A stretch of 64,000 bases of DNA, from positions 3,969,442 to 4,033,441 of the forward strand of contig NC_087379.1 in NCBI RefSeq assembly GCF_963675165.1, read 5' to 3'. Below, one piece after another: positions 7,984 through 13,900 of the stretch. This DNA comes from Halichondria panicea. Its lineage: Eukaryota > Porifera > Demospongiae > Suberitida > Halichondriidae. Position numbers and translations under genes: made by a program. Each line of letters begins with the position of its first letter. Position 1 is the stretch's first letter. The notes under the pieces are model-generated. The model ran no database searches. It was not told where the DNA came from and worked only from the letters and a program-made list of their open reading frames with translations.

Positions 7984-10900
7984 CTATTATTATGAATGCT
8001 AGATAGTGAACAAAATTAATCGTGAATACATACCATAATGATTGCGAAGTTGGTGAGATGATTGCACTGGCATGATATGGATCCATTAGTGATGTTGCTA
8101 TCGAGCACAGAACAGCCATCAGTACTCCAGTTTCCTAAAGGCAAGTAAACAATCAACACTATAGATCTAGTTTATACTTACCAGTAGTGAAGTTCCACGA
8201 AACACAGTGAGTGGGATTGGTACGTGTATAGTTCTATGAGCAAGAAATCAGTAGTTGAATTAAGTGTACATGCATGAAAATTGTATTCACCTCAGTGTTA
8301 ACGATGATTGGCAAGGTAATGGTAACTGGTAGTGTCAGATTGGAGATGAAAGTGTTGGCCACAATTGCCCCCACGACTGGTGTTCCAACAATAAGACCTA
8401 CACTGTCAAGATATTCATCCAGAGGGAAGAGAGATGAATTTGGGTACACAGAAAAAGCAAGACCTGTCGACTCAGTCTGTTTAAAGACTTCACTCGGGAG
8501 CATCACTGTAACTTTGTTGTAAGCTGGAGGGCTTGTATCTGTGTGTTGGTATGTGTAGAGTATCGTATCCAATTTTGATTCACTGCTGAAACACTAACCA
8601 TTGTATGAGTTGTTCACAGCAGTCATTAAGTCAAGTGCAGACACATCAAACACAAATCCAACTTGCCGAAGAGTTGACAGGTTTCCCTGAATCATTATAA
8701 TCATGACTAATACACTGAGACTGGTAATTATGATCTGACACATACACTATACAACATAAAGATGTAGAGCAGACAGAGCACGACTACACATAGATTGTAC
8801 CTGCTGTCCCCTGAACAAGAGTTGTGGTTGTTCAATAGTGTTGTTAGTGAAGTTCTCCTGGCTAACAAGATTTTCAGCGAATGTATCAAATGACGACACA
8901 ACTTCTGTCGAAGAGTTTCTGATAGCTTTAGATGGCCAAATAGAGATTGCACTAACAACTCCAGAGACATTGGTCAAAAACTATGGTGAAAAACCATTTA
9001 CATAACAATTAAAGGGACCATGTGAAAAGTGCACCACCGGTATAATTCATGTCAACCTACAACTCTAGACTGGTTAGTAACATACCAGTACTAGATATAC
9101 ATACAATAAGTGAGGAGCTTTTTACTTTCAATTTAAGACCAAAATGTATGCGTATACACGTATCTTTAATGTGCATGCAAGGGATATTCAGATCTATAAT
9201 ATAAGTACAGGCAGTACGAGACAACTGAACATGCAACATGCATTTAATTTCTTACAGGAATGTTAATTGAAAAGTTTCCAGAGGTCACCACTGTTGCTGC
9301 ACTTGACAAAGTTGATGATACTACTGCTGCATTATCAGATATTTGATCTCGCATATCCGTGGCAGCAAATGACACAGCATTCGCCAATTGTTCTACAACC
9401 ATTTCAATGTTTTCAGAAGTTATCCCAATCTGTATAGATGGAATATACAAAAGGTTGCGAAGGGAAAAATAATCAGTGTAGTGGCACGCTCAGAACCGAA
9501 TTAAGAGCCTAAACGTACTCCCTCTATTAGTCTCATGCATGACCTATAATAATATGTTTAGTGTATATACATACTAGCTGTACCATATCAATGTTGAATG
9601 CACCAAATGAGTGGGGATTGAGAGTAAGATCTTTAATCTGACTCTCCAAGGTCGAGCCCCCATTCACAACCTTGCCGTTCTTTAAATACATCACCAACTT
9701 TTATAAGGTGCAGGTGATTCATGAGACTAACTCTCTATAGTGACACAGGACGAAGGGACTATACTCTCAAAGTGGCTTTGTTGTCTCTATAGTGACACAG
9801 GACGAAGGGACTATACTCTCAAAGTGGCTTTGTTGAATGCTTTAATGTGATACAGTATTAAAGTATCACCAAAATTATAGACTTACCTGTGAAATCCGTT
9901 GAAACTCAAATGTAGTTTCACTAATACACTCTCCTGGAGTGTAGGTTGACCACATTCTGTGTCCATTACATATTCTAGCTACAGTAGCAGTGCTGTTTGG
10001 TGCATTCAGACTCCTGTAATAACATAAAAATGAATTTTTGCCTCCGACTTCTGTTTCTGTCCAGCTATACACTCCGTGCAGCACAGTGTTATTGATTTCA
10101 GAGTCACAGAATCCTTGATTAGATACTACAATGCGAGGAAAAAAACAAGTATGTGTAGATCTACATGTACGTAGGAATTGACACTCATTGCCGTCATTGG
10201 TCAACTAACATACACACGCACCATTCACACTGTCCTTGACAACAACTGGGTATCGTAGGCGTTGCAACACGTTGCTGGCTGCGTTTGTAATGACTGTACT
10301 ATCACTGCTACTAGTCAGGATACAATCGTACCTATCCCAGGAATTTTCAACGTCCTCCATCCTCCTGCGAGCAATTAAAATTATGTGTGTTGAATCCTAT
10401 TACTATAACGTTTAGCGAGTGAAAAACGTTTGCGAATGGGCTACATCAGCAGAATAAAGCCATAAAGCAATTATATATGACATCATACAACAAGTACTGG
10501 ATAGGTCTGTGCTACATGTATCTTATTCTAGTGATAATAGCACTCAAAGTTCACATAATTATGTAATTTAGCTATTCTGGTGCCCAAATTAGCAAACCTT
10601 CCATCCGGCAGAGGTCTGCATTGAGCAGCTGTAATTTCGTCAACCTCACTGACAATCTGTTTGAAGACAGATTAAACACTTAGAAATGTTATATGATTTA
10701 AACACTTACTTGATTACTGATATAGCCAGCAAACAGTGCAGGTGGGTTCAGTTCAAAGCGCATCAGCATGTTAGGATCGGTAGAAAATCTCATAAAAGAG
10801 GGTCTCCCTTCAGCTTTTGTATAAAGGGTTACAATGTGAAGACGTAGCCATGCAAGTACACTACAACCTATGTAGCTCTTATTTCAATTCTTTAAACAAT

Positions 10901-13900
10901 GCAATATTGTACCTATATAATTATAGGGCTACTACAGCACATGTACCTGTTCGAGGACGAGGAGTGACAGTGACAGAAGTATTAGTTACTTCAAAGTTGG
11001 ATGCCACACATTCGTACATACGTGATATTTCATTTTGAACGTCTTGAAAGCCAATATCGATGCGGTCCATGTTTGAGTTGCTGAACACCAATGTCCTAAG
11101 GTCAACTCTTGATGTAGAATTTCTAAAAGAGTAAAGATGTCCAGCATAGTCCGAAGGCGGCCCGTCATTAAAACTTCTCTCCACTGTGAAAATACTCATA
11201 ACATTGCACAGAAATCGAAGTACGTACCTAGCGTGCCATTTTTGTATCTCCATTCAACACGGAATAATGGACTAGTTTCACACACAATCAGTAACACATT
11301 TCCGTAATCAACCGAAGAACTGTAATTTCCCAATGTCACATTAGGAGTTCGAGCTAAGTGTGAAAAACATATGTAGCTTCATACATATATTATTACACGC
11401 TGATCTACAACTTACGAATACACTCCGTGAAGTCTTCATTTGGCTCATGAGTGTTGGGGAGGCAACTGACAGGATTTGTATTCTACAAAAACATAATAAG
11501 CTGTTTTGGCTATTCCACTGTTTCTTACTCACTGCAAGAAGTCCAAAATTGGTGAGATGGTTGCAAGTGCACTCCACTAAGCCACTATTCTCGTCATAAG
11601 TGACAAGAGAGCAGCCTTCATTACTCCAGGTTCCAGTACCTATAAACAATGGATTAACGAATGTCAGTCATGCTATAATTGTGACGTCTAATCTCTGCCT
11701 ACAAAATGTTTACTGAAAACAAACACATACCCAAACTTGAGTCTGAGTCCCAGAAACTACAAATTGGCGCTCTATAATTCTGAAAAATAATTTAAGAGCA
11801 TAAGTAAGTGCCAAATTAATTTTACTGATCTTACTGTGTTTGAAAGGATCATCGAAATGGTGACATTACCCACAAGTGCCTGATCAAGGATATTGGCTCC
11901 AATCACAGGCGAGCCTATTTGGAACCTGGGATTCCTGTTTGTTTGAGGCGACAGGGGAAACAAGTTAGCATCTGAGAATGCCGAGAAAGATAAACGGATG
12001 TTTGGAGAAGAGAATTTACTAAATACTGAAGGGGGTAAACTGATACTCATTGAAGAGCTCCTCGCGGTGAAAGATGGCCCAGCATCATCTGTGGGAAAAG
12101 ATTAGAATAATTATGTAAAAGCACCAATACTATACCACCACTTACTTAATGAAAACATTTGGCCAGATTGTTGAAGACTTTGTAAAGAAACCTGGACGAT
12201 AAGGGAATAGTTAACACAGGGATATCTATGTGGTACATAATATTATTTTCAAGATCCTGTAACCTTCAGTTCAGCTGTATGTACAGATTTGCAATTGTGG
12301 TATCTTAGATGAAGGTGCTGCACCAGTCAGTGTCTACTGTGTGCATGCAAACGAATAATCACTAACCTCTCTTCCGATATATGCTACAGATGGAGATGAC
12401 GTGGTAATGCCAGTTGTTGTGAAATCAAAGTTGTTAAAGATGGACTCAAACGTTTCAACCATACTATAAAAAAATCCCAATCAATGCAGTTCACAATCAA
12501 TGCAGTAAGCAATGCATAACAAGTAAACACAGTAATTATATACATGCATGTAGTTGACATATAGCAGACCTTGGAGCATCATCCTGCAGAGCATCGAGTG
12601 TCCAATTGCTCACATCACTGAGAATGCCTACAAGGTCCTGTACGGCCTCCTCTGGGAGAGGCGGTTGACCGGCAAAATGTTCAAAAAGTTCAGAAAGCAC
12701 TTTAATGGTGACAGACGACTGATCTTCATCGTCACTTCTACTGATAGTCGCCGAGACATCTGCAACAACGCTGTTGGCATTTTGTGCAGTAAGCTCCTGA
12801 GGTGAATGATGAAAGTCCATGCACAACACGTTACATAACACTTGACACCACATTGCTTACACATGCACATACGTACATGGTGTTTAAAATAACTGAATGC
12901 TATATACAGACCTGGATTTGGTTTTGTAAGTAGCAAGTGTTTGCAGTAGGACACGCAGAGTAGTTAGTATCTTCCCACTTTCCAGACTCATCACATGTCT
13001 TTATGGCCTCACGACCTACTATTACACCGCTGCAATTTAATTCACAAGGTATCGAAATTGTTTGTTTTGCAACTATATCACCGAGCCAGAGATAAGTGCC
13101 AAATGATCCTATTTCTTCTATTTCAGGGCATGTAGCTGTGTAAATGAGTCATAAAAACGATGCACTGTGCATGACATTGTAACAGTACACACATTCACAG
13201 ATGACGCTGATGTCTTGGTTGTGGTTGCAATTGTGCAAACTGGAAAAGTCAAATGTGTTGCAATCAAAAATTGAGTCTTCAGTTCCAGCGCAATCCAGTC
13301 GAGAAAGGAAGATAGGCCCTTTGCCAGGTCCATACATTGTGCTGAACATGTGATCTTAAGAGTATTTTGTGAACAAAGTGATCAACAGAATAATTATATA
13401 ACTTACTTCTGCCTGCAGAAAAACCAGCCATCATGCACACAACTTGTGCATCAAGGCGATCAAAACCAATTTCACACACAGTGCCCCATACATTGTTCAC
13501 ACAAACTTCCAGTCTTCCTTCAAACAAGTGTGGTACACCATCGTTAATCAATCTGATATCACCATGAGAGCAATTTTCCTCAGTAAATTTTACCGTCTCC
13601 ACTCCTGGAACACATACATGATCGATCACAATTATTTTATAGGCAAGCACCGCTATAATAATCATTATTTCTGTGCTAATACATCTGTGTTTCTGCTCAC
13701 CCTGACACACGACATCAGCATCATCACCACCCACACACACGCTGGAGCTCTCACTATCACAATCTGTGAGATGTGCCTCTTTTCCAGTACAGTTAACATC
13801 AATGAGTGAAACTGCTAATTGCCTTTGGGTGAATTTAGACGGTCCTACAACTGCTCCTGCGATTAAAAAGAAAAGGAACTATACTCACTACCCTACATGT

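What the first reader, a model, noticed from the sequence alone, without database searches (positions are those of the whole stretch)
8034..12796. One adhesion GPCR chain with two complete GAIN/GPS modules
Seen directly: two GPS motifs, [13 protein letters not shown] (11533-11779) and [13 protein letters not shown] (8034-8233), each with its upstream cysteine/tryptophan half and a GAIN-like region, in one continuous reading frame, separated by an Ig-like and a HormR-like region. Only the second is followed by seven helices. Typical adhesion GPCRs have one GAIN. If both cut, the receptor would be three non-covalently linked pieces, with an internal releasable ectodomain and possibly two strain thresholds. 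The cleavage triplets are intact in both. The functional reading is inference.
Basis: partly seen in the sequence, partly recalled or inferred. Interest (0 to 1): 0.85.

Follow-up and report, generated by a model that had tools for sequence, protein, structure and literature searches.

The report
Adhesion receptor with two self-cleaving modules
An animal gene, probably from a sponge, encodes one long adhesion receptor that carries two complete copies of the self-cutting GAIN module normally found once, and several relatives in the same genome do the same, so a receptor held together at two breakable joints can now be tested.

Summary
On the minus strand, 24 exons (13135 to 6499) join by GT-AG introns into one 1345-residue frame ending in TAA: HormR-GAIN-GPS ([10 protein letters not shown]), a linker with an Ig-like domain, HormR-GAIN-GPS ([10 protein letters not shown]), one 7TM. 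About 15 SRCR and 11 EGF units lie upstream. The modules are homologous end to end (hhalign E=2e-41) and match solved GAIN structures.

It is not a one-off. In this genome 7 of 68 GPS matches are followed by a second GPS 1.7-4.3 kb downstream with no listed 7TM between: the window gene, four relatives alike from GAIN1 on, and two genes of an independent, recent kind in which GPS1 and the start of GAIN2 share one exon. The closest 7TM relative shows no GAIN1 in the stretch examined. GPS2 keeps HLT in 7 of 7; GPS1 has lost its nucleophile in 2 of 7.

Architecture is firm (about 0.93) but without transcripts. Cleavage of GAIN1 and two release thresholds are inference. I read GAIN1 as a second joint in series: cuttable here, shut in some relatives. 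New variant of a known kind.

The parts
13193..26087 (-). Upstream array of about 15 SRCR and 11 EGF units (exons and gene start not modelled); the last SRCR exon ends at 13193 and reads in frame into HormR1
   Evidence: tblastn with seeds from the window, E up to 1 shown, some units weak; last junction read by eye
12912..13135 (-). HormR1 (first hormone-receptor-like domain), one exon
   Evidence: Pfam HRM 17.0 bits, below cut-off; BAI3 HormR-GAIN structure 4dlo aligned from residue 29 of the module
11731..12796 (-). GAIN1: exons 12796-12570, 12463-12367, 12191-12146, 12088-11835, 11779-11731
   Evidence: one open frame, GT-AG; PDB matches ADGRG6 6v55 (E 2.4e-10) and 4dlo (E 1.6e-8)
11533..11639 (-). 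GPS1 exon, cleavage triplet H-L/T, tethered-agonist-like strand TNFGLLA; intron 27 nt after the start of the His codon, phase 0
   Evidence: Pfam GPS 50.4 bits; junction positions
11416..11482 (-). Linker exon after GPS1 (NTNPVSC...ECI) where single-GAIN receptors have TM1; 64-nt counterpart in L001-L003
10947..11353 (-). Ig-like domain, exons 11353-11228 and 11183-10947
   Evidence: Pfam Ig_3 15.7 bits, below cut-off; five-sequence profile matches solved Ig proteins at best E 1.6e-7, with no single stretch passing on its own
10222..10813 (-). Unassigned region of about 100 residues between Ig and HormR2, exons 10813-10710, 10656-10598, 10364-10222
   Evidence: linker as a whole matches C1 (34% over 230), L001 and L003 (27%); no structure match of its own
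9887..10125 (-). HormR2, one exon
   Evidence: counterparts in C1 (47%) and L001-L004 (33-34%); six-sequence profile covers 6v55 and 4dlo from its position 19-20
8182..9429 (-). GAIN2: exons 9429-9256, 8980-8801, 8686-8599, 8538-8291, 8233-8182
8034..8134 (-). GPS2 exon, H-L/T, TNFAIIM; same phase-0 intron at +27 nt
6499..7983 (-). 7TM and cytoplasmic tail: exons 7983-7862, 7743-7481, 7389-7287, 7228-6499, stop TAA
   Evidence: Pfam 7tm_2 93.5 bits, residues 954-1207

Best explanation
A real double-GAIN adhesion GPCR made by one gene (architecture about 0.93). GAIN2 with GPS2 and its tethered agonist TNFAIIM is the ordinary activating module next to the 7TM. GAIN1 is a second HormR-GAIN-GPS cassette placed upstream in series: a phase-0 intron directly after the GPS strand lets the exon block be joined in frame to a linker-Ig exon instead of to TM1. 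In this gene GAIN1 keeps the known triplet and GPS Cys/Trp frame for self-cleavage, so the mature receptor is most likely three chains held by two non-covalent joints. Under load the weaker joint should open first: GAIN1 would shed the SRCR/EGF head without firing the receptor (a fuse or clutch), GAIN2 would fire it. In relatives whose GPS1 has lost the nucleophile the first joint is covalently shut and GAIN1 is only a folded spacer. Shown: anatomy, homology, relatives, triplets. Inferred: cleavage, strand retention, mechanical role, exon-joining route.
For: One 24-exon open frame through both modules; GPS twice and 7tm_2 once; GAIN1 and GAIN2 homologous over 326 columns, E=2e-41; both match solved GAINs. 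The two-module layout is modelled in L001-L004: with the window GAIN1 as query the upstream DNA scores 243-306 on the sense strand against 100-133 antisense and 81-117 in three block shuffles each, while the single-GAIN gene C1 gives 157 against 137 and 135-139. In L006 the exon holding GPS1 can be read without an intron through a Pro/Thr/Ser stalk into the first stretch of GAIN2; L005 is modelled the same way. The post-GPS junction is at +27 nt, phase 0, in the GPS1 of the window gene and of L001-L003, as in the GPS next to the 7TM of the window's wider group (10 of 10; 12 of all 23 modelled). GAIN1 looks constrained in L001-L003: pairwise dN/dS 0.33-0.37 against 0.23-0.34 for GAIN2 (no significance test). 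The cleavage rule His-Leu/Ile-Ser/Thr is in PMC13197933 (passages); GPS1 of the window obeys it.
Against: No transcript, protein or structure model. GPS1 is degenerate in 2 of 7 double-GAIN genes (HLG in L001, HAG in L004), so cutting there is not conserved. The GPS1 strand TNFGLLA departs from the TxFxxLM consensus at its last residue. Common origin of the GAIN1s has weak support (68/84). Two signal-peptide-like ORFs lie in introns between the modules (10486, 10197), and ATTAAA, a variant poly(A) signal, occurs at 9846 and 9637 in the 457-nt intron between HormR2 and GAIN2, so extra starts or ends are not excluded. The aligner's models of L001-L004 have 32-36 pieces, among them tiny ones at the 5' end and odd stretches in some linkers that are probably false. 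L004's GAIN1 is remote: the L003 GAIN1 as query scores only 152 there against 111 antisense, and its post-GPS junction is at +37, phase 1.
Confidence: 0.6

Rival explanations
1. GAIN1 folds but does not act as a separable joint: a HormR-GAIN spacer or ligand-binding platform whose cleavage is neutral; only GAIN2 matters for signalling. Same architecture as the best explanation, so the two are not fully exclusive.
For: GPS1 lost its nucleophile in L001 (HLG) and L004 (HAG) while GPS2 is HLT in 7 of 7; GAIN1 nevertheless looks constrained (dN/dS 0.33-0.37); cleavage is reported as dispensable in several single-GAIN receptors (PMC13197933, passages).
Against: The window gene, L002, L003, L005 and L006 keep HLT or HLS in GPS1, more than a bare spacer needs.
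Confidence: 0.3
2. Two genes or two main transcripts: a secreted SRCR-HormR-GAIN1 product and a separate Ig-HormR-GAIN2-7TM receptor, like the single-GAIN relative C1.
For: C1 is such a receptor without GAIN1; reading on from the GPS1 exon through its intron meets a stop after 63 codons (ORF 11341-11667); signal-peptide-like ORFs at 10486 and 10197 and ATTAAA at 9846 and 9637.
Against: The seven introns from GPS1 to HormR2 are 44-233 nt, and the stretch holds no AATAAA or ATTAAA; phases fit throughout; a counterpart of the linker exon follows GPS1 in L001-L003; in L006, and by model in L005, the two modules share one exon.
Confidence: 0.07
3. GAIN1 serves to release a soluble decoy: cutting at GPS1 is constitutive and the SRCR/EGF head is shed without any role for force.
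For: GPS1 of the window gene is intact and lies far from the membrane in the chain.
Against: Solved cleaved GAINs keep their strand tightly bound (PMC13197933, passages); nothing here shows spontaneous release.
Confidence: 0.15

Closest known systems
Adhesion GPCRs with HormR-GAIN-7TM core (solved examples ADGRG6/GPR126, ADGRB3/BAI3, ADGRL3)
   Same: GPS2, tethered agonist, 7tm_2, HormR before GAIN; family profiles match 6v55, 4dlo, 6vhh
   Different: One GAIN per chain as far as known (recalled); here a second complete HormR-GAIN-GPS lies upstream, away from the membrane
Sponge adhesion GPCRs with SRCR repeats, HRM and Ig (Amphimedon Aq712029, Aq715659; PMC4302439)
   Same: SRCR repeats ahead of an adhesion 7TM; HRM and Ig in the family (passages)
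   Different: The passages seen count receptors with a GPS domain and do not mention two GAINs in one chain; the architecture figure was not visible and the sequences were not at hand, so an orthologue there is not excluded
Single-GAIN relative C1:4529042 in this genome (L023+L017)
   Same: Closest 7TM (61% over 279 columns, sister at 100/100); same Ig-linker-HormR-GAIN-7TM
   Different: No GAIN1 in the 9.85 kb upstream examined; an IgGFc-binding-like domain there instead
Polycystin-1-like proteins (recalled, not tested)
   Same: GAIN outside the adhesion GPCR class
   Different: One GAIN and a different membrane part

Membership tests
Adhesion GPCR | 7tm_2 (class B2) seven-helix domain | tested here: met
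   PF00002 93.5 bits, cut-off 20.6, once
Adhesion GPCR | GAIN domain with GPS directly before the 7TM | tested here: met
   GAIN2/GPS2, profile match to solved GAINs; fold itself not modelled
Adhesion GPCR | H-L/I-S/T cleavage triplet and tethered agonist at GPS2 | tested here: met
   [10 protein letters not shown]; Ile for Leu at the sixth place of TxFxxLM; rules from PMC13197933
Adhesion GPCR | One GAIN per chain (usual, not strictly defining) | tested here: not met
   Two, homologous over 326 columns
GAIN domain (module 1) | Full-length homology to solved GAIN, subdomains A and B | tested here: met
   6v55 over residues 41-333 and 4dlo over 29-334 of the module
GAIN domain (module 1) | Pfam GAIN model PF16489 | tested here: not met
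   No hit on either module; only 2 matches in the whole genome, one over the cut-off, so the model is insensitive here
GAIN domain (module 1) | Self-cleavage | not testable with these tools
   Triplet and GPS Cys/Trp pattern present
HormR domain | PF02793 above curated cut-off | tested here: not met
   17.0 bits against 26.2 for HormR1; none for HormR2; named by alignment to HormR-GAIN structures

The most novel reading that the evidence does not exclude
A two-joint mechanoreceptor: both GAINs cut, the chain is three pieces in series, and the two joints open at different loads, GAIN1 as a fuse that sheds the SRCR head without signalling and GAIN2 as the trigger; lineages set the fuse on or off by keeping or losing the GPS1 nucleophile, and the design arose at least twice in one genome.
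Probability: 0.27. Interest if true: 0.85.

Novelty: new variant of a known kind. Interest (0 to 1): 0.64.

Why it matters
Whether release of the N-terminal fragment or mere strain on the GAIN activates adhesion GPCRs is disputed (both models are set out in PMC13197933, passages). A natural receptor with two GAINs in series separates the jobs: one joint can break far from the 7TM. The relatives form a ready-made panel (GPS1 HLT, HLS, HLG, HAG; GPS2 HLT in 7 of 7; a sister without GAIN1) to test what cleavage and series joints do. It also suggests how a phase-0 intron after the GPS strand could make the cassette movable.

Tried and rejected
Two-gene split: rejected as main reading because of short introns, fitting phases, a counterpart linker exon in relatives, and the unspliced join in L006. 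Recent duplication inside the window gene: holding WIN_G1 and WIN_G2 as sisters is rejected (p-AU 0.0043). That was one of five groupings, named after an earlier tree had been seen; three were not rejected (p 0.23-0.24) and one, the four GAIN1s together, was already in the best tree at 68/84. Assembly artefact for the window: the modules share only about 25% identity. The C13 copies are 81% and 88% alike and could in principle be an assembly effect, but two genes show it with different stalks. The 30-row GAIN tree left the deep order open. The PF16489 genome search was uninformative. That the +27 junction is universal: no, it is in 12 of 23 modelled GPS next to a 7TM. The one paper found by 'two GPS' with GAIN (PMC5548486) means two mutants, and PMC3996519 means plural of domain names. 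The library holds open-licence papers only, figures and supplements were not seen, and animal protein databases were not at hand: such architectures may sit there unremarked. Of papers I saw: PMC12716839 passages and section 11; PMC4302439, PMC13197933, PMC6208332, PMC8242945, PMC10855680, PMC5548486 and PMC3996519 passages only; others as search listings.
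Full report
OBSERVATION. The window lies at G000:C3:3969442-4033441 of a 131 Mb, 39-contig genome. One GPS-like pattern has two hits in six frames, both on the minus strand, at the stated places. From the sequence I built exons by eye: 24 exons from 13135 to 6499, 23 GT-AG introns between them, phases fitting, one frame of 1345 codons, stop TAA. A splice-aware protein-to-genome aligner with site weights trained on these same introns returns the same exons, which is a consistency check only. 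Pfam finds GPS twice (50.4 and 50.7 bits on the separate modules) and 7tm_2 once (93.5 bits, residues 954-1207); HRM and Ig_3 stay below their cut-offs and PF16489 GAIN is not hit.

ANATOMY. In order: SRCR/EGF array (about 15 and 11 units, 26.1-13.2 kb; exons there not modelled, gene start not found), HormR1, GAIN1, GPS1, a 67-nt linker exon, an Ig-like domain, an unassigned region of about 100 residues, HormR2, GAIN2, GPS2, 7TM, tail. GAIN1 as a single sequence matches ADGRG6 chain 6v55 (E 2.4e-10, residues 41-333) and BAI3 HormR-GAIN 4dlo (1.6e-8, residues 29-334). GAIN2 alone matches ADGRL3 and ADGRG1 chains in its last third and, as a six-sequence profile, 6v55 and 4dlo nearly end to end (4.3e-21, 1.5e-11). 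Profile against profile, the two modules align over 326 columns, probability 100, E 2e-41. So both are complete by sequence; the fold was not modelled.

RELATIVES. Genome-wide there are 68 GPS matches and 164 7tm_2 matches, not all listed, from 150 of 227 candidates scored. With all 68 GPS rows and 57 of the listed 7tm_2 rows, 7 GPS are followed on the same strand by another GPS 1695-4319 nt on, with no 7tm_2 row between; 54 are followed first by a 7tm_2 row within 2811 nt; 7 have none near in my list, and 4 of these 7 have a 7TM match close by (C5:5924658, C5:5992684, C7:4793834, C9:6726902). The seven doubles are the window, C2 twice (L001, L002), C11 (L003), C15 (L004) and C13 twice (L005, L006).

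FIRST KIND. L001-L004 model as GAIN1, GPS1, Ig, spacer, HormR2, GAIN2, GPS2, 7TM. A HormR before GAIN1 is seen by tblastn in L001; in L002 and L003 only its second half is modelled; the front of L004 differs and was not assigned. The models hold 32-36 pieces, tiny ones at the 5' end and odd stretches in some linkers being probably false. L001-L003 have SRCR and EGF hits upstream; L004 gave none in the 9.9 kb held. Because an aligner can force a query on any DNA, I scored GAIN1 alone on the DNA before HormR2: 293, 306, 294, 243 for L001-L004 on the sense strand, against 119, 133, 125, 100 antisense and 81-117 in three shuffles each. The nearest 7TM relative, C1, gave 157 against 137 antisense and 135-139 shuffled: no GAIN1 in that stretch. 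With the L003 GAIN1 as query, L004 gave 152 against 111 and C1 152 against 145, so L004's GAIN1 is remote. GAIN1 in L001-L003 looks constrained: dN/dS 0.37, 0.33, 0.37 for the three pairs, GAIN2 0.34, 0.26, 0.23, 7TM 0.17, 0.18, 0.28 (no significance test).

SECOND KIND. In L006 GPS1 (CECTHLTNFAIL) is followed in the same exon by ...GKPRPRTDEPVTNTN, a Pro/Thr/Ser stalk (a tandem repeat of 75-nt units, 4.5 copies, 97% matches) and the start of GAIN2; TM1 follows GPS2. L005 (CECTHLTNFAVI) is modelled alike with a short stalk. A similar stalk stands before GAIN1 in L006. GAIN1 and GAIN2 are 81% alike in L005 and 88% in L006, and the four modules group together at 99/98, so this doubling is recent and separate. 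The neighbour L022 shows one GPS in the stretch held.

EVOLUTION. The 7TM tree of 17 rows (16 of 23 models, and C8) puts the window with C1 (100/100) and these two with L001-L003 (82/86); L004 sits elsewhere in the wider group. A counterpart of the linker exon stands after GPS1 in the window gene and L001-L003, so the doubling most likely predates their split and C1 lost GAIN1; it carries an IgGFc-binding-like domain there. Separate gains are not excluded: the GAIN tree of 14 rows joins the GAIN1s only weakly (68/84); sisterhood of the window's own two GAINs is rejected, p-AU 0.0043; three other groupings were not rejected, p 0.23-0.24. The junction after the GPS strand is at +27 nt, phase 0, in 4 of 5 GPS1s of the first kind (L004: +37, phase 1) and in 10 of 10 GPS next to a 7TM of the window's wider group; over all 23 modelled GPS next to a 7TM it is in 12, the rest having +45, +48 or no junction within 130 nt. 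It gives a ready place for exon joining: inference.

CLEAVAGE. The rule is His-Leu/Ile-Ser/Thr (PMC13197933, passages). GPS2: HLT in 7 of 7. GPS1: HLT window, HLG L001, HLS L002, HLS L003, HAG L004, HLT L005, HLT L006: 5 of 7 fit. Against the consensus TxFxxLM (same passages) the window's GPS1 strand TNFGLLA lacks the last Met, GPS2's TNFAIIM has Ile for Leu.

MECHANISM. Shown: two homologous modules in series in one predicted chain. Inferred: both cut, the pieces stay together, force runs through both. If so the weaker joint decides: a weak GAIN1 sheds the head silently, a weak GAIN2 fires first and GAIN1 is idle. Which is weaker is unknown. The HLG and HAG relatives would have a shut first joint. 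I hold the architecture at 0.93, cutting at GPS1 in this gene at about 0.65, a distinct load role at about 0.3.

KNOWN OR NEW. Adhesion GPCRs, HormR-GAIN cores and SRCR-bearing sponge receptors are known. I found no mention of two GAINs in one adhesion GPCR in the listings of ten searches or the passages read, within the limits told in Tried and rejected.

None of these required a change of odds.

Noticed in passing
L024 (C8:1242300-1250300): A 7TM nearly identical to that of L004 with no recognisable GPS in the model: a receptor copy that may have lost its GAIN, or has an unmodelled front.
   Followed up: partly
L023+L017 (C1:4516300-4532500): Closest relative of the window gene carries an IgGFc-binding-like domain (100.9 bits) ahead of Ig-HormR-GAIN-7TM.
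   Followed up: partly
window 36887-38275 and 57942-59516, plus strand: Two long open frames with IgGFc-binding domains (Pfam PF17517, 152 and 166 bits), the second with an SRCR match just after it at 59641-59814.
   Followed up: no
window 61897-63168, minus strand: Single-frame MFS_5 transporter-like ORF of 424 codons (196.9 bits).
   Followed up: no
window 10813-10222, minus strand: Region of about 100 residues between Ig and HormR2, matched in C1 and more weakly in L001 and L003, with no match of its own to a solved structure.
   Followed up: partly
L006 2872-3210: Coding tandem repeat of 75-nt units (Pro/Thr/Ser stalk between two GAINs), possibly variable in length.
   Followed up: no
G000 C17:4715028-4907427; G000 C5:3842070-7257070: A tight cluster of 11 further single-GPS matches on C17 and 12 GPS matches spread over 3.4 Mb of C5.
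   Followed up: no
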